Below, in pieces: positions 1 to 5,948 of a stretch of 5,948 bases of DNA. Under the pieces are notes generated by a model that was given only the letters and a program-made list of their open reading frames with translations, was not told the origin of the DNA and did no database searches. How positions within the stretch are numbered: the first letter of the stretch is position 1; each line of letters begins with the position of its first letter. Location of the stretch: positions 1-5,948 of the forward strand of contig JABFST010000203.1 of NCBI GenBank assembly GCA_013140465.1. The letters run 5' to 3'. Made by a program: the position numbers and the translations under genes. This DNA comes from Methylococcaceae bacterium (lineage in GTDB: Bacteria > Pseudomonadota > Gammaproteobacteria > Methylococcales > Methylomonadaceae).

Positions 1-582
1 GGTTAAAACTTCGCTGAAATAGGCTTTTGCCCAGGTAAATTGAAAGCGGCGGTCAGGCCGTTCGTCGTATTGGTTTTTGTCGTGTTGTTCTTGCGCCCAA
101 TGCAAGACCCTATCAGCCAGCGACAGGATGTTAGCCGTGCGTTTTATTTGCATCAGCGCGCGGCGCAGGTTTTCATAAAGCTCGTCAATGTCATGGCTAG
201 CCAGCAATTGTTGAAAACGCAGTTCGCTTAAGACGGGTTTGCCGCTTTGGTCATTTTGTTGCCCCAACTGTTTGGGGAAACTGAGGTCGCTAAGCTGGTT
301 AATATGCGCCAATATGCCGGCGACTGCGGCTAAGGCCAATGTGGGGGTTTTGGGGAAATGCTGCTGCAAGTCATAAAAACTCGCTTGCATCAGGATGTCC
401 TGTGGTTTTTCGCAGCGACGGAGCTTGGCCCGCTCACCACGGTTGGACTTGGTTTTGCCATTGGCCAGTTGGGGGTCCTGTAGGCTATCCCACCAAGCCA
501 TTAAGGCTTGCTGTTCGTGCTCGCGCCACAAAACGCTGTAGCGGGTTTTTTCGGTTTTTGTTGTGTTGTTGTCATCACTCAT
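1..582 (-). CDS. cse2: Cse2 (CasB/Cas11), small subunit of type I-E Cascade, 3' end cut off
   Basis: Reading the minus strand from ATG at 582-580 gives 194 codons with no stop before the window edge, so the extreme C-terminus is missing. Cse2 forms the dimer along the belly of Cascade that holds the displaced DNA strand of the R-loop. Supporting sequence: an early WW (WWDSL, about residues 36-40), a basic GERAKLRRCEKP segment (55-66) typical of this all-helical family, LSELRFQQLLAS (about 144-155), LRRALMQIKR (about 164-173) and a final RRFQFTWAKAYF segment near the end, where the family usually stops. Usual length is 160-200 residues, so little is lost. The start is fixed by AGGAG (590-594 on the plus coordinate) seven bases upstream. 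It follows cse1 after 13 nt, so the two are almost certainly one operon. The remaining Cascade genes presumably continue off the left edge. Confidence 0.93.
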   Translation of the reverse strand, partial: MSDDNNTTKTEKTRYSVLWREHEQQALMAWWDSLQDPQLANGKTKSNRGERAKLRRCEKPQDILMQASFYDLQQHFPKTPTLALAAVAGILAHINQLSDLSFPKQLGQQNDQSGKPVLSELRFQQLLASHDIDELYENLRRALMQIKRTANILSLADRVLHWAQEQHDKNQYDERPDRRFQFTWAKAYFSEVLT

Positions 583-2164: not shown

Positions 2165-2248
2165 TTACGGTTCTCCTACTAAAAATTTTTGGCTATTGAG
2201 GGTATTGCTGGTGTTGCATTGATTGTTGCTTTCGCGTACTTATTTAGG

Positions 2249-2298
2249 CCCCCTCGCAAGCTCCCCCCCCTTGAAAAAGGAGAGAACTTGCGAGGGGG
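2249..2298. repeat. Inverted repeat with 12-bp arms, dispersed-repeat type
   Basis: The arms CCCCCTCGCAAG (2249-2260) and CTTGCGAGGGGG (2287-2298) are exact reverse complements. Inside them CTCC and CCTT can pair again with GGAG and AAGG, so the whole element folds as one long interrupted hairpin. It contains a run of eight C (2263-2270). Its appearance, C-rich with AAGGAG-type inner pairing, is that of short intergenic repeats found in many copies in some proteobacterial genomes; this family assignment is from memory. It is not followed by a T-run in either direction, so I do not call it a terminator. Confidence 0.6.
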
Positions 2299-2310
2299 GT
2301 ATTTAATAAA

Positions 2311-2341
2311 CCTCCCCTAACCCCTCCTTTTTAAGGAGGGG
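2311..2341. repeat. Second C/G-rich inverted repeat, 9-bp stem
   Basis: CCCCTCCTT (2321-2329) pairs perfectly with AAGGAGGGG (2333-2341) across a TTT loop, preceded by a related CCTCCCC (2311-2317). With the neighbouring inverted repeat it forms a compact ~95-bp block between the 58-codon ORF and cse1. The block resembles a common intergenic repeat seen in multiple copies in various gammaproteobacterial genomes (recalled, not searched). The RNA hairpin could slow transcription or stabilise an mRNA end, but there is no following U-tract. Confidence 0.6.
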
Positions 2342-2384
2342 AACTGAATGTTTACGCTTTCGCTACGCATAACAGCTACAAGCT

Positions 2385-2561
2385 TTAGGCTTTGAACCAA
2401 GGATTGGCGGCTATCACGGCAACGCCTAAAGCCGTTGCACACCTGTCATACTTGCTTAAAACTGTGAGGGCGAATAAAACAACCAGTAATACCAAAGCAA
2501 TTAGACCCTTAAGCGATAATTGATTTAACGCCAATACAATTCTTTCAATGTCGTTGAACAT
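2385..2561 (-). CDS. 58-aa small membrane protein, unrecognised
   Basis: I do not recognise this protein. From ATG at 2561 it encodes 58 residues: a polar amphipathic N-terminus (MFNDIERIVLALNQLSLK), one clear hydrophobic segment (about 19-36, rich in L, V and A), a short charged loop (SKYDR, 36-40), a second mildly hydrophobic stretch (42-53) and the tail NPWFKA. It would sit in the inner membrane. Two features argue that it is real: AGAGA (2567-2571) five bases before the ATG, and a strong promoter (2592-2620) whose expected start point is about 24 nt upstream of the ATG. A longer in-frame reading back to 2771 would run through that promoter and the CRISPR repeats and is not credible. It lies between the guide-RNA target and cse1, on the cas strand. 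It could be a small toxin, a cas-linked membrane protein, or a leader ORF. Confidence 0.5.
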   Translation of the reverse strand: MFNDIERIVLALNQLSLKGLIALVLLVVLFALTVLSKYDRCATALGVAVIAANPWFKA

Positions 2562-2591: not shown

Positions 2592-2620
2592 AGCATAGCC
2601 CCCCAAAAAGACAATGTCAA
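2592..2620 (-). promoter_or_regulatory. Sigma-70 promoter for the 58-aa ORF and probably cse1-cse2
   Basis: On the minus strand a perfect -35 box TTGACA (2615-2620) is followed after exactly 17 bp by TATGCT (2592-2597), four of six matches to the -10 consensus. The start point would fall near 2585. The spacer contains a run of six G. This is the best promoter in the cas3-cse1 interval. Since no other is visible ahead of cse1, it plausibly drives the Cascade operon through the 58-aa ORF. The self-matching protospacer begins 10 bp upstream of the -35, with its PAM on the promoter side. Confidence 0.65.
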
Positions 2621-2629
2621 CAAAACATA

Positions 2630-2664
2630 AAGCTCTTTTGTATTTCTTATAAAAATCTCGTAAT
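2630..2664 (+). other. Self-protospacer with AAG PAM for the mini-CRISPR spacer
   Basis: AAG (2630-2632), the canonical type I-E PAM, is followed by 32 nt that match the spacer at 2727-2758 at 19 positions. Matches are at 1-5, 7-10, 13-17, 19, 23, 26, 30 and 31. The seed (1-5, 7, 8) is complete, and in the first 19 positions the mismatches are 6, 11, 12 and 18. Positions 6, 12 and 18 are flipped out in Cascade and need not pair. Such partial pairing is known to allow Cascade binding without efficient Cas3 destruction. The site abuts the minus-strand promoter and covers a possible plus-strand -10 (TATAAA, 2648-2653). Confidence 0.7.
2648..2653 (+). promoter_or_regulatory. Possible -10 box for the mini-CRISPR transcript
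   Basis: TATAAA matches five of six bases of the -10 consensus, and a transcript starting near 2660 would cover the mini-CRISPR and end at its hairpin near 2786, about 127 nt. No convincing -35 lies 16-18 bp upstream. TACAAT at 2689-2694 is an alternative -10, also without a -35, and would start transcription inside the first repeat. The TATAAA box overlaps the self-protospacer, so bound Cascade could also limit guide synthesis. Confidence 0.28.
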
Positions 2665-2670
2665 GAAGAA

Positions 2671-2683
2671 AAATTTGTTGATT
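2671..2683 (-). promoter_or_regulatory. IHF-like site in the leader position
   Basis: The minus strand reads AATCAACAAATTT, matching the IHF consensus WATCAANNNNTTR at all but the last base. It lies 14 bp upstream of the first 29-nt repeat, roughly where type I-E leaders carry the IHF site that bends DNA for spacer integration. The surrounding sequence is AT-rich, so a chance match is possible. If real, it suggests that the mini-array derives from a leader-proximal fragment of a normal array. Confidence 0.3.
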
Positions 2684-2695
2684 CTAGGTACAATA

Positions 2696-2726
2696 GGTTC
2701 ATCCCCACGCCCGTGGGGATGAACCG
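2696..2726 (+). repeat. First CRISPR repeat, perfect 13-bp palindrome
   Basis: The arms GGTTCATCCCCAC (2696-2708) and GTGGGGATGAACC (2713-2725) pair perfectly around a GCCC loop, and a final G (2726) completes the canonical 3' end GTGGGGATGAACCG of type I-E repeats. The last eight bases, ATGAACCG (2719-2726), would be the crRNA 5' handle left by Cas6e cleavage. The 5' half differs from the usual GTGTTCCCC or GAGTTCCCC form: it is the reverse complement of the 3' half, so the stem is nearly twice the usual seven base pairs. Confidence 0.85.
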
Positions 2727-2787
2727 CTCTTGTGTACATCTTAGAGTTAGGTAAAAAACCGTTCCCCACACCCGTGGGGATTTTTCA
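2698..2787 (+). CRISPR. Mini-CRISPR: repeat, one 32-nt spacer, degenerate repeat
   Basis: Two 29-nt repeats (2698-2726 and 2759-2787) flank a 32-nt spacer (2727-2758). The 61-nt period is exactly that of type I-E arrays, and the locus sits between I-E cas3 and cse1. The repeats share a 19-bp core (2702-2720 and 2763-2781) with one difference, G against A. The second repeat keeps the stem but has lost GAACCG at its 3' end, as terminal repeats often do, so the array reads on the plus strand. Its mature RNA would carry an 8-nt handle and the spacer, and load into Cascade. The spacer partly matches a PAM-flanked site 94 nt upstream, which suggests a regulatory guide like CreA or CreR instead of an immune memory. 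No further repeats are visible. Confidence 0.85.
2763..2786 (+). terminator. Degenerate repeat acting as intrinsic terminator of the guide RNA
   Basis: TCCCCAC (2763-2769) pairs with GTGGGGA (2774-2780) across ACCC, and TTTTTC follows at once (2781-2786). The seven-pair GC-rich stem is the Cas6e recognition hairpin of the repeat, while the T-run replaces the GAACC of the normal 3' end. The combination has the form of a rho-independent terminator, so the guide transcript would end here, before dinJ. On the minus strand the same stem is followed four bases later by six T, so it could also work in that direction. Confidence 0.55.
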
Positions 2788-2843: not shown

Positions 2844-3101
2844 ATGAAATCTGAATTTATACGCTGTAAGGTAGAACCTGAGTTAAAAACCACGGTGGAT
2901 GGGATTCTTGCCGAATTAGTCATTAACACCACCCAAGCCATTACCTTGTTTTACCAACAAATCGCTTTAACCAACGGTTTGCCGTTTGCGTTGGAGTTAC
3001 CGAATGAAACAACCCTCAAGACAATGCAAAAAACCGATGCCAACCAAGAGCTGACGGTCTGCAAAGATGCGGATGACCTGTTTGACAAACTCGGCATTTA
3101 G
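2844..3101 (+). CDS. dinJ: DinJ-type antitoxin (RelB/DinJ family)
   Basis: 85 residues, against 86 in E. coli DinJ. The antitoxin binds YafQ, blocks its ribonuclease activity and represses its own operon through an N-terminal ribbon-helix-helix. Seen: a short beta strand (EFIRCKVEP, 4-12), helices of the DNA-binding part (LKTTVDGILAELVINTTQAITLFYQQIAL, about 14-42), the family-typical GLPFALELPNETTLKTM (45-61), and a C-terminal toxin-wrapping tail KDADDLFDKLGI (74-85) identical to the end of E. coli DinJ as I recall it. The ATG at 2844 has AAAGG seven bases upstream; an earlier in-frame TTG (2793) has no ribosome binding site and lies just after the guide terminator. The toxin gene starts 2 bp after the stop. 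No clear promoter or LexA box is visible upstream; a weak -35 (TTGGAT, 2793-2798) has no good -10. Confidence 0.95.
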   Translation: MKSEFIRCKVEPELKTTVDGILAELVINTTQAITLFYQQIALTNGLPFALELPNETTLKTMQKTDANQELTVCKDADDLFDKLGI

Positions 3102-3103
3102 CC

Positions 3104-3370
3104 ATGCTGGCCCCGGTATTTACGCACCAATTTAAACGTGACCTTAAGCGCCTAGAAAAGCGCAATAAAGACATGGACAAGCTTAAATTCCTGATGCGGC
3201 GGTTACTGGACAATGAGCCTTTAGAGCCCAAATACCGTGACCATGACCTTATCGGCAACTACTCCCAACGCAGGGAATGCCATATAGAACCCAATTGGCT
3301 ACTCATCTACAAAAAAGAACCCGACCGTATTATTTTTGAGCGCACGGGTTCCCACGCCGATTTGTTTTAA
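3104..3370 (+). CDS. yafQ: YafQ-type mRNA interferase toxin (RelE superfamily)
   Basis: 88 residues, the usual size (E. coli 92). YafQ enters the ribosomal A site and cuts mRNA, mainly at in-frame lysine codons, stopping growth when DinJ is degraded. Recognisable segments: KRDLKRLEKRNKDMDKLKFLM (11-31), YRDHDLIGNY (44-53), RRECHIEPNWLLIYK (56-70) and FERTGSHADLF (78-88). By alignment from memory, catalytic His50, His63 and His87 of E. coli correspond to H47, H60 and H84. Asp61 is replaced by E58 and Asp67 by N64, which may weaken or alter cleavage. The gene is 2 bp behind dinJ and ends 11 bp from the stop of cas3 on the opposite strand, with no terminator seen in the gap, so the two transcripts probably overlap. 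It may stabilise the CRISPR locus by addiction. Confidence 0.95.
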   Translation: MLAPVFTHQFKRDLKRLEKRNKDMDKLKFLMRRLLDNEPLEPKYRDHDLIGNYSQRRECHIEPNWLLIYKKEPDRIIFERTGSHADLF

Positions 3371-3381
3371 ATTTGTACCGC

Positions 3382-5948
3382 TTAACCCCCCGCAAATTGC
3401 CCAATCTCTGCACCTAACAACATGCCCTGCTGGCAACAGTATGTTAGGCTTATGGCTTTGCCGTTAGCGTCTACCGCCTGGCCTTGCCATTGGGTATCAG
3501 ACACGGGCAGCATCGGCAAAATAAAGCTATAGTCGTTAAAGCCTTGTTCTTGGTCACGCAGTTGCTTAAGGGCTGCCGCCAAGTCTTTGGACAATTCAGC
3601 CAAACCGCTAAGTTGTTGGGCTTTAATATTGACGCTACTTAAATCCCAAGCATATTTTTTTGCCCGCACTAATGGCGATAACTGTCCCTCGTGCCAAACC
3701 GCTAAATACACCGTGACCGAATCTTCTGATAAACGCGTGGGTATGCGCTGGTCTTCATCCCAAGAGTTGTCACTAAGGGTGTAACCGGACTCGGGTTTCA
3801 GGGCATTCATATTCGCCATGCTCGCTTTTGCCCAATGTTCGCCTTCAGCTTCGGCACTGGCTTTTTTAAGGGCTTCAGGAATGTCGCCGTCCTCTGCGCG
3901 ATACACGGTGTCTATGAGTTCCCGCGCATCTTCGGGCATACGCCATGCTTGTTTTTTTGCCAATAACTGGGCGGTGCGCCAGAGTTGCCCGGTGTGCGGA
4001 TACACACCATTGGCTTTGGGGAATACTGCTTTGTACCAATCTTGGGCTGGCTGTTCTTCGAGTACAGGCGCATGGATGACTAGGCTAGGCAATAGGCGTT
4101 GGTCTTGTAGTGCATAAATGTCTGGATTGCCTAAGCTGTCCCGGATATGGCGGTGTAAACGCCCAGCACGTTGAATCAATAAATCTATAGGCGCCAAGTC
4201 GCTAATCATCACGTCAAAATCCAAATCTAAGGATTGCTCCACTACTTGGGTGGCACACAGGACTTTACCGCTACGCATGGCAGCCGTGGATGTTTTGCCA
4301 AACAGGTTTAATACTTGCTCTTCAATGGTTTGCCGATCATGCAAGGCATAGCGGCTATGAAAAAGCAGTGCTTCGCCCGTAAACGCCGCATTATTTTTAA
4401 GTTCGCTGTAGGCAGTACGCGCATCAAAAACGGTGTTGCGTATCCAGCACACACACTGCTTATTGGCTACTGCAAGGTTAATCAATTCGTATACGGCGGC
4501 GCAGTCATGGACAAACGCCACTTTAACCGTGCGCTGCACTTCTGGGCGGGTAGCCAACACCTTTTCTACGGGTTCGGCATCGGTGATATGAGTTAATAAG
4601 GGATAATCGCCGGGGGCATTTTTTTGTAATTTGAACGGCGTAAAGCCGGCCCCTTTTTGGAACGCCGCAACAAAATCTTCGCGCATCGCAAACGGCAGTG
4701 TCGCGGACAATAAAATCGCGCTACCGCCCAACAGGGCATGGAAGTGCAGTAGATTTTGCAACAACCGGTTCATATAGGCATCGTAAGCATGGACTTCATC
4801 GACAACCAGCACTTTATTGGCTAAGCCCAACAGCCTTAAGGACTGATGTTTGGCAGGTAAAACCCCGAGCAAAGCTTGGTCTATGGTACCGATGCCAACA
4901 TCCGCCAGCAACGCTGCCTTACGATGGTCTGCAAACCATCGCACACATTGTATAGAAGCCGTGTTGTCGTCGCGGGTGTAATCACGGTCTTTGGCGGTTT
5001 GCCCCATAATGGATTGCTGAAAGGCTTCTGATAAATGCCTGGCACTGTGCGCCAAAATTAATGAGGGTTTTTCGTGATGGGCGTAGAGCTTTTGATAACA
5101 ATCACCCATGCGCCCATACATGGCATTGGCGGTTGCCATTGTCGGCAAACCGAAAAACAAGCCTTGTGCCAAACCTTGGCTGATTAAGCGATGGGCTAAC
5201 ATCACTGCCGCTTCGGTTTTTCCTGCCCCTGTGACATCTTCCAAGATCAATAACTGAGGGCATTGCGGCAATACCAGACTGTCTGCTGCTAACTGTAATG
5301 GCGTAGGTTTATTAAGATAGGGAAATAGTGCTGGTAAACTTTGTTTACTGGCTACTTTTGCGGGCAAGATGCCCGCTTTTTGTAGGGCAAGCTTTGCACT
5401 AGGAAGTGCGTGCTTATGCCAATAATCGCTTAACGATAGGGATTCATCAGCGCAATATTTAAAACTGTCGGTATCAGAGCCCAACCAATCACATAACACA
5501 CTATACCCAGACAACAACCAACTGGCGGATTGTTGTTGCTGGACAAAATGGTCTTGTTGCAGATAGCTGGCAAGGGCTGCTGGGTCGGGCTTAAAGAGTG
5601 GGGTAAGGTCTTGATAAAATGCGGCGGCACTGTCTATATCAAACGCTTTAAAGTAAGTTTTGGCTAATACCTTAGCGCCATTTTTACTGTTTTTCGGTGG
5701 CATACCATGATGCCCCGTCACTGCTTGTAGCCATATTTTTAGGCTTTTACGATAAAAACGCGATTCAAGAGCAATGTCTTTACGAATGGCTGAATCGTCT
5801 TCCCATAGGATGAACCCTAAGCTGTCATGGCGAATGTCATAACTGGTTTTAGTGATTGCGCCCCACCAGTTTTGCCGTAGTTCTGGCTTTAATTGCTGGA
5901 AGCTCTCGGCAAACTTACCGCAGTCATGCACGGCAAGCAGTACACTTA
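3382..5948 (-). CDS. cas3: Cas3 helicase-nuclease, type I-E, 5' end cut off
   Basis: The frame is open to the right edge: upstream of GTG at 5931 it continues with SVLLA, so that codon is internal (it encodes the Val before HD) and the true start is outside, probably 60-80 codons further. Counting from that codon, HD-nuclease metal ligands are H2-D3 (HDCGKF), H35 (RHDSLGF), H74-H75 (GHHGMPP) and D148 (CDWLGSD); the family's first His lies off the window. Helicase motifs follow: Walker A VTGAGKT (K238), GLPTMATANAMY (261-272), DEVH (378-381), SATLP (409-413), LLFHSRY (522-528), ATQVVEQSLDLDFDV (560-574) and QRAGRLHR (587-594), then a C-terminal domain to 849. All visible catalytic motifs are intact. 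Cas3 is recruited by Cse1 to nick and degrade target DNA from the PAM side. It is separated from cse1 by 1.2 kb, so it may be transcribed apart from Cascade. Confidence 0.97.
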   Translation of the reverse strand, partial: SVLLAVHDCGKFAESFQQLKPELRQNWWGAITKTSYDIRHDSLGFILWEDDSAIRKDIALESRFYRKSLKIWLQAVTGHHGMPPKNSKNGAKVLAKTYFKAFDIDSAAAFYQDLTPLFKPDPAALASYLQQDHFVQQQQSASWLLSGYSVLCDWLGSDTDSFKYCADESLSLSDYWHKHALPSAKLALQKAGILPAKVASKQSLPALFPYLNKPTPLQLAADSLVLPQCPQLLILEDVTGAGKTEAAVMLAHRLISQGLAQGLFFGLPTMATANAMYGRMGDCYQKLYAHHEKPSLILAHSARHLSEAFQQSIMGQTAKDRDYTRDDNTASIQCVRWFADHRKAALLADVGIGTIDQALLGVLPAKHQSLRLLGLANKVLVVDEVHAYDAYMNRLLQNLLHFHALLGGSAILLSATLPFAMREDFVAAFQKGAGFTPFKLQKNAPGDYPLLTHITDAEPVEKVLATRPEVQRTVKVAFVHDCAAVYELINLAVANKQCVCWIRNTVFDARTAYSELKNNAAFTGEALLFHSRYALHDRQTIEEQVLNLFGKTSTAAMRSGKVLCATQVVEQSLDLDFDVMISDLAPIDLLIQRAGRLHRHIRDSLGNPDIYALQDQRLLPSLVIHAPVLEEQPAQDWYKAVFPKANGVYPHTGQLWRTAQLLAKKQAWRMPEDARELIDTVYRAEDGDIPEALKKASAEAEGEHWAKASMANMNALKPESGYTLSDNSWDEDQRIPTRLSEDSVTVYLAVWHEGQLSPLVRAKKYAWDLSSVNIKAQQLSGLAELSKDLAAALKQLRDQEQGFNDYSFILPMLPVSDTQWQGQAVDANGKAISLTYCCQQGMLLGAEIGQFAGG

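What the first reader, a model, noticed from the sequence alone, without database searches (positions are those of the whole stretch)
2630..2758. Spacer partly matches a PAM-flanked site beside the promoter of the same locus: a probable Cascade-guided regulator
The 32-nt spacer (2727-2758) and the DNA at 2633-2664 agree at 15 of the first 19 positions, including the whole seed. Mismatches are at 6, 11, 12 and 18, so all but position 11 fall on the every-sixth bases that Cascade does not pair. The PAM-distal half is largely unpaired, and the site is preceded by AAG, the canonical I-E PAM. Established knowledge: partial seed-side pairing lets Cascade bind and block transcription without efficient Cas3 cleavage, and crRNA-like CreA and CreR RNAs use this to repress a toxin gene or the cas operon. 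Inference: this is such a guide in a type I-E locus. A perfect self-match would be lethal; the pattern here is what a tolerated self-target should look like.
Basis: partly seen in the sequence, partly recalled or inferred. Interest (0 to 1): 0.93.

Follow-up and report, generated by a model that had tools for sequence, protein, structure and literature searches.

The report
CRISPR guide guarding a hidden peptide
In this bacterial CRISPR locus a two-repeat mini-array carries a spacer that partly matches a site beside the predicted promoter of a tiny, probably membrane-bound peptide gene and the CRISPR genes behind it, so the CRISPR complex likely keeps both switched off and would release a predicted toxin when it is disabled.

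Summary
In 2000 shuffles of the window none reaches it (best 12 of 15 against 14). Of 100 distinct regions upstream of cse1, 38 reach 13/17 matches (4.65 expected); mismatches gather at 6, 12, 18 and beyond 17, and the 38 carry 30 different seeds. Window and close relative L034 changed guide and target together at four positions.

Not found in print is the cargo. The targeted promoter leads into a 58-aa hydrophobic peptide, then cse1. Relatives of about 36 aa form an unannotated family under protein-level selection (pooled pN/pS 0.22). Of 14 intact copies in those 100 loci, 13 have a guide; three close relatives without the guide have the peptide broken or missing. I infer a Cascade-repressed, toxin-like peptide joined to cas autoregulation. 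The family is patchy, and toxicity, guide RNA and repression are untested.

The parts
2698..2726 (+). first repeat of the mini-array (R1), ends in handle ATGAACCG; extended palindrome 2696-2725
   Evidence: 3 mismatches to an I-E type consensus; in relatives R1 is degenerate but its stem often stays paired
2727..2758 (+). 32-nt guide spacer (crRNA-like)
   Evidence: no exact match of its first 20 bases in viral contigs, best phage E 0.08
2759..2787 (+). second repeat (R2); its stem 2763-2780 is followed by TTTTT and is called terminator-like
2630..2632 (+). PAM AAG
   Evidence: AAG in 31 of 38 loci
2633..2664 (+). protospacer partly matched by the guide (14 of 15 at positions 1-17 without 6 and 12)
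2592..2620 (-). predicted sigma-70 promoter TTGACA-17-TATGCT, -35 starts 12 nt from the protospacer edge
2385..2561 (-). 58-aa hydrophobic peptide gene, predicted toxin-like, first gene behind the targeted promoter
   Evidence: model with helices 2-13, 17-37, 39-52, mean pLDDT 70, pTM 0.37
2240..2350 (.). copy of a dispersed palindromic repeat between peptide and cse1 (not part of the module)
   Evidence: 51 matches in own genome
596..2164 (-). cse1/cas8e
   Evidence: TIGR02547 E 5.5e-101
1..582 (-). cse2/cas11, cut by contig end
   Evidence: TIGR02548
3382..5946 (-). cas3, cut by contig end
2844..3101 (+). RelB/DinJ-type antitoxin, neighbour, probably unrelated to the guide
3104..3370 (+). 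YafQ/RelE-type toxin, neighbour

Best explanation
The two-repeat mini-array at 2698-2787 likely makes a crRNA-like guide that would lead the cell's own Cascade to the AAG-flanked, partly matching site at 2633-2664 and so repress the adjoining predicted promoter, the only one predicted ahead of a small hydrophobic peptide gene and the cse1 operon. Shown by sequence: array, PAM, partial match with unpaired bases at 6, 12 and 18, promoter-like site, peptide frame, cse1 behind it, and joint change of guide and target in relatives. Inferred: the guide is transcribed and processed by Cas6e; pairing of about 17 bases lets Cascade bind without Cas3 cutting; bound Cascade blocks RNA polymerase. Inferred further: the promoter serves both peptide and cas genes, so one guide works as CreR (feedback on Cascade) and as antitoxin (silencing of a peptide that would harm the membrane). 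If an anti-CRISPR or a mutation disables Cascade, both would be released: more Cascade, and if that fails a peptide that stops the cell. The guide part I hold at about 0.93, repression of cas genes at about 0.75, the peptide as toxin at about 0.5.
For: Chance excluded; site unique in the assembly. Of 100 distinct cse1 upstream regions 38 reach 13/17 matches against 4.65 expected and 27 reach 14/17 against about 0.5; mismatches among the 38: position 5: 1, 6: 24, 7: 1, 11: 2, 12: 20, 13: 1, 18: 25; PAM AAG 31 of 38. Guide and target co-change. Set distance from target to -35. R1 stems kept by paired changes in several lineages. Peptide: pooled pN/pS 0.22 over 28 pairs of 8 genes. In 201 genomes of the family a profile of the peptide gave 11 hits at E 2e-6 or better; all 11 lie beside cse1, 10 have a guide-target pair of 13-15 of 15, the 11th is cut by a contig end; five of the 11 are contigs already seen. 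Close relatives without the guide: peptide split by a frameshift in L036, absent in L035 and L037. Cas6e, a Cas5 and a Cas7 gene lie on another contig of the assembly. Published parallel: in Acinetobacter I-F the creA spacer pairs at 17 of 20 positions, all but 6, 11 and 18, in the cas3-csy1 gap, with a divergent toxic mini-gene (PMC10097628, passages).
Against: No RNA or expression data. The peptide is patchy: as a single sequence the window's peptide finds only itself in 61 related genomes and one protein cluster, its own, in the protein database; with the family profile, one solid hit (the window) in 369 genomes drawn over the class. L074 carries an intact peptide beside cse1 and no guide that I could find. 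L038 and L039 have the guide without the peptide, so guide conservation does not need it. The window's peptide is longer (58 aa) than its relatives and 18-46% identical to the other 18 members aligned, its near-twin P0001 apart. A 110-nt dispersed repeat parts it from cse1 here, so co-transcription is less plain than in L034 (28 nt) or L081 (20 nt). No family library knows the peptide, so 'toxin' rests on size, hydrophobicity and the analogy with CreTA/CrePA.
Confidence: 0.8

Rival explanations
1. CreR only: the guide is a plain autorepressor of the cas operon, and the peptide is a harmless leader or an accessory protein of the operon.
For: CreR is reported for type I-E (PMC13131331, passage); L038 and L039 have guide and target 60-66 bp before cse1 with no peptide; L074 has the peptide and no guide found.
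Against: The peptide family is under protein-level selection, recurs with a divergent Cascade (L126, cse1 26% identical), and is broken or gone where the guide is gone in three close relatives.
Confidence: 0.35
2. Classical CreTA: the segment behind the promoter acts as a toxic RNA and its reading frame is incidental, as reported for Acinetobacter I-F creT.
For: Same layout in the cas3-cas8 gap; published creT genes carry a conserved mini-ORF yet act as RNA (PMC10097628, passages).
Against: In 28 pairs of eight relatives synonymous differences run from 0.15 to 1.00 per site while protein-changing ones stay at 0.04-0.28, which is not expected of a sequence-specific RNA toxin. Not tested on the window's own subgroup.
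Confidence: 0.1
3. An ordinary antiviral spacer whose likeness to the promoter is an accident or a past self-acquisition.
For: A spacer between two repeats beside cas genes is what an array remnant looks like.
Against: 0 of 2000 shuffles, the same relation in many lineages with different seeds, no viral source found.
Confidence: 0.02

Closest known systems
CreR (cas-regulating RNA from a mini-CRISPR; types I-B, I-E, V-A)
   Same: mini-array beside cas genes, partial match with PAM at a promoter ahead of the Cascade genes, same subtype I-E (passage in PMC13131331; passages of the review PMC12737573; primary paper not held, recalled only)
   Different: here a small peptide gene lies between the targeted promoter and cse1; [quoted passage not shown]
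CreTA of Acinetobacter I-F (PMC10097628, passages)
   Same: cas3-cas8 gap, divergent mini-gene, hairpin-keeping repeats, spacer unpaired at 6, 11 and 18
   Different: creT is reported as a toxic RNA with a 33-bp frame; here selection in relatives keeps a protein of about 36 aa; type I-E; the published target lies downstream of the creT promoter
CrePA (section 3.3 of PMC12737573)
   Same: protein cargo repressed by a crRNA-like guide and Cascade
   Different: CreP is described as typically a KilA-N protein acting on FtsZ; the peptide here has no Pfam or PHROG domain and looks like a single membrane helix
Type I toxin-antitoxin peptides (TisB, Ldr and the like; recalled)
   Same: short, one hydrophobic helix
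   Different: no antisense RNA known; the silencer would be Cascade acting on DNA

Membership tests
CreR | mini-CRISPR of one or two repeats beside cas genes | tested here: met
CreR | spacer partly matches a PAM-flanked site at a promoter | tested here: met
   (promoter predicted, not measured)
CreR | the promoter is that of the cas operon | tested here: inconclusive
   only predicted promoter in 2150-2860 ahead of cse1; directly before cse1 in L038 and L039; here a peptide gene and a repeat lie between
CreR | guide RNA made and repression depends on Cascade | not testable with these tools
   needs RNA and reporter work
CreTA | cargo acts as an RNA toxin | tested here: inconclusive
   protein-level selection in 8 relatives, pooled pN/pS 0.22, speaks against it; the window's own subgroup not tested and no toxicity assay
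CreTA | two degenerate repeats flanking the guide | tested here: met
   mild in the window, strong in many relatives
CrePA | protein toxin with KilA-N domain | tested here: not met
   no Pfam match for the window's peptide and only sub-cut-off ones for its relatives
CrePA | cargo stops cell division when Cascade is disabled | not testable with these tools
   needs an experiment
Type I TA toxin | short hydrophobic peptide | tested here: met
Type I TA toxin | silenced by an antisense RNA | not tested
   no antisense gene was looked for

The most novel reading that the evidence does not exclude
In a clade of type I-E systems the first gene behind the Cascade promoter is a membrane-toxin peptide, and the CRISPR effector is its only antitoxin: one guide at one promoter couples cas feedback with a suicide switch that any anti-CRISPR would trip. 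The slot also takes other small cargoes, and guide spacers that fold back on their seed would make the switch easy for ordinary crRNAs to displace.
Probability: 0.4. Interest if true: 0.87.

Novelty: new variant of a known kind. Interest (0 to 1): 0.74.

Why it matters
If true, CRISPR immunity in some methanotrophs and other gammaproteobacteria comes with a built-in peptide that punishes loss or inhibition of Cascade, in a form (short protein ahead of the Cascade genes, behind one promoter) not described in the listings and passages seen here (searches). It gives a sequence rule for finding such guides without experiments, namely a PAM plus positions 1-17 with holes at 6 and 12 at a set distance from a -35 box, and makes the question of why cells keep CRISPR testable in culturable strains such as Methylomonas sp. 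LW13 (L059).

Tried and rejected
Spacer as phage-derived: an exact scan of viral contigs with its first 20 bases gave 0 matches; phage blastn at E up to 1 listed 15 records, best E 0.08. Peptide as phage or plasmid gene: one family member gave no match in either collection. Known family for the peptide: nothing convincing in Pfam (best E 0.0031, an OppC_N membrane helix below its cut-off), PHROGs (best E 0.0038, unknown function), NCBIfam (window peptide only) or PADLOC. Rfam: only sub-threshold matches; Chlorobi-1 RNA at 2697-2763 has 24.3 bits against a gathering score of 50. Peptide hits dropped as chance: G249, G368, G474 and G618, all partial, E 2e-4 to 6e-4, no cse1 found beside them; L042 with E 0.79. 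Some of the 38 pairs are chance (about 4.65 expected; L049, L075, L083, L110 and L032 look so by handle or PAM); they were kept in the counts. For L081 the row shown is not the pair found, which also has 13 of 17. The 100 regions include sister pairs (L098 and L102, L018 and L022), so they are not all independent. The guide's own promoter: only a TACAAT at 2689-2694 seen by eye, not called by the scan.

A first phasing test was biased because the PAM complement CTT itself helps make a TTGACA-like start; it was redone with those three bases kept (29 loci picked by hand). Self-folding holds for the set (35 guides, mean z -1.57, against 300 of 521 array spacers, mean z -0.16) but not for the window's guide (z +0.54); 8 of the 35 were cut shorter than 32 and related species are not independent. 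Fixed-register stem counts understate pairing where R1 is one base shorter. The protein search scored only the 7989 candidates sharing most words.

Full report
What is in the window. The window is a whole contig (C477) of a draft assembly of 507 contigs, 83% complete. Its closest cse1 relatives in named records are four Methylobacter MAGs with about 80% protein identity (L034-L037). It holds part of a type I-E operon on the minus strand: cas3 (3382-5946), then a gap, then cse1 (596-2164) and cse2 (1-582), named by Pfam and NCBIfam. Cas6e, a Cas5 and a Cas7 (CT1975-like) gene lie together on another contig, C155, so the assembly holds genes for every Cascade subunit, in pieces.

The match. Positions 1-5, 7-10, 13-17 and 19 agree; 6, 11, 12, 18 do not; the distal half is mostly unmatched. 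With an AAG PAM and positions 6 and 12 left out it scores 14 of 15. In 2000 dinucleotide shuffles of the window the best AAG score was 12, reached once; 20,000 shuffles of the gap gave none at 14. In the assembly the AAG-plus-seed pattern occurs once without mismatch.

Relatives. I took up to 3 kb upstream of cse1 from 114 sequences (the window, copies of it, and the loci), then 100 regions with distinct last 300 bases. Guides were the 32 bases behind an I-E handle with up to 4 mismatches in 12, targets a PAM plus sequence on either strand within 1.5 kb. Thirty-eight of 100 loci reach 13 of 17 raw matches; 40 shuffles per locus predict 4.65. Twenty-seven reach 14 against about 0.5. The criterion does not favour any position, yet mismatches fall on 6 (24 of 38), 12 (20) and 18 (25) and hardly on 5, 7, 11 or 13 (1, 1, 2, 1). 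That is the mark of Cascade, which leaves every sixth base unpaired (established knowledge). Beyond 17 the guide is nearly free. PAM AAG in 31 of 38; 30 different five-base seeds. Between the window and L034 guide and target share the new base at positions 3, 8, 14 and 17.

Geometry. Of 29 hand-picked loci with the target on the strand opposite to the operon, 23 have a promoter of 8 of 12 or better within 70 nt; its -35 starts 1-2 nt (12 loci) or 11-13 nt (9 loci, the window among them) from the PAM-side edge of the protospacer. Five hundred shuffles that keep the PAM complement give 10.7, 1.5 and 0.75 on average, with maxima 17, 7 and 4. The two positions lie about one turn of the helix apart, which suggests (inference) that bound Cascade must face the polymerase in a set way. 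Other loci, such as L057, L059 and L065, have the target on the operon strand with the -35 inside the protospacer.

Repeats. R1 is often far from the array consensus (arrays) yet in several lineages keeps its stem by paired changes, for example CTACGC/GCGTAG in L058, CCCAAT/ATTGGG in L064, CCTCAT/ATGAGG in L090. This fits processing by Cas6e and the reported degeneration of creA repeats (PMC8501985, start of abstract). R2 looks closer to consensus by eye and in the window ends in a T-run that the scan calls terminator-like.

The peptide. Behind the targeted promoter, ahead of cse1, a subset of these loci carries a frame of about 36 codons: a first helix with a nearly invariant Asn, often a Ser-Pro turn, and one hydrophobic helix (alignments; model of the window's peptide with helices 2-13, 17-37 and 39-52, mean pLDDT 70, pTM 0.37). 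It ends 20 nt before cse1 in L081 and 28 in L034; in L057, L059, L065 and L068 a HicBA pair, in L064 HicB alone, lies between (Pfam names for L059). Eight relatives give a pooled pN/pS of 0.22 over 28 pairs, with synonymous differences above 0.6 per site in most of them, so protein is what selection keeps. A profile search of the protein database listed 33 members including the window's own, none with a Pfam domain, called hypothetical or uncharacterized where named. In 201 genomes of the family the profile gave 12 hits; 11 at E 2e-6 or better all lie beside cse1, 10 with a guide-target pair, the 11th 162 nt from a contig end. Over the class it is rare: in 369 genomes only the window gave a solid hit. 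In the 100 loci, 14 intact peptides: 13 with guide, one (L074) with none found. Three of the four nearest relatives speak to loss: L036 has the frame split by a frameshift and no recognisable handle, L035 and L037 have neither guide nor peptide. L038 and L039 have the guide aimed at the promoter directly before cse1 and no peptide.

How it most likely works. Shown: anatomy, co-change, geometry, selection on the peptide in relatives. Inferred: a crRNA-like RNA is made, loaded and used by Cascade to hold the promoter shut; partial pairing spares the DNA from Cas3. With the only predicted promoter ahead of both peptide and cse1, the guide would act on both. When Cascade is scarce or blocked the promoter would open, making more Cascade and the peptide. 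I think a membrane-acting toxin is the likeliest role of the peptide (about 0.5), because the layout is that of CreTA in Acinetobacter I-F (PMC10097628, passages) with a protein cargo as in CrePA (PMC12737573, section 3.3), because of its build, and because it decayed where the guide is lost in close relatives. Against it stand L074 and the patchy spread. A leader or accessory role remains open (0.35).

Comparison with what is known. CreRs are in print for types I-B, I-E and V-A (PMC13131331, passage; the primary paper is not in the library and is only recalled). So the guide is a new member of a known kind. CreTA is defined by an RNA toxin, which the selection pattern speaks against without settling it; CrePA by a KilA-N protein, which is absent. 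A short hydrophobic peptide as cargo, ahead of the Cascade genes behind the guided promoter, is the new variant. Searches for it in print: in an open-access library without preprints or most subscription journals; an unseen paper or supplement may well list some of these loci.

Further leads. Guide spacers as a set fold back on themselves and mask the seed more than array spacers do (not in the window). Other small cargoes occupy the same slot elsewhere.

Noticed in passing
L016, L038, L063, L068, L082, L099, L104, L109, L112, L119, L124, L125, L126: Guide spacers of this kind are often inverted repeats, the 3' half pairing with or near the seed: these 13 of 35 fold better than 95% of their shuffles; mean z -1.57 for 35 guides against -0.16 for 300 array spacers. 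The window's guide does not share this. Might make the guide easy to outcompete.
   Followed up: partly
L016, L027, L089, L099; L098, L102, L109; L112, L094; L018, L022; L043, L052; L108; L045; L104: The slot between targeted promoter and cse1 holds other small frames: a hydrophilic 60-80 aa type ending near FADT or FSDT, a 44-aa type behind a long leader, other short hydrophobic peptides, a small basic peptide and singletons. The three tested (from L099, L098, L112) have no Pfam match.
   Followed up: partly
L057, L059, L064, L065, L068: A HicB-like gene, in four of the five with HicA, lies between the peptide and cse1; Pfam names both in L059, the others read by eye. A type II toxin-antitoxin pair might then share the Cascade-repressed promoter.
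   Followed up: partly
window 2844-3370; L036 5330-5614: RelB-YafQ pair between cas3 and the mini-array in the window; a frame much like this RelB sits at the same place in L036 (by eye), so it is an old neighbour.
   Followed up: no
window 2240-2350: Copy of a dispersed palindromic repeat with 51 matches in the assembly, between peptide and cse1.
   Followed up: partly
29 loci: Distance from target edge to the -35 box mostly takes two values, 1-2 or 11-13 nt, about one helical turn apart.
   Followed up: yes
L074: Intact peptide of the family right before cse1 but no guide found in 900 nt: a counterexample or a decayed guide.
   Followed up: partly
L034 3332-4033, also L035, L037: A transposase-like gene of the REP-associated kind (named by eye) follows cas3; in L035 and L037 it stands in the gap where guide and peptide are missing.
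   Followed up: no
window 2697-2763: Sub-threshold Rfam match to Chlorobi-1 RNA, E 0.00025, 24.3 bits against a gathering score of 50, over the mini-array.
   Followed up: no
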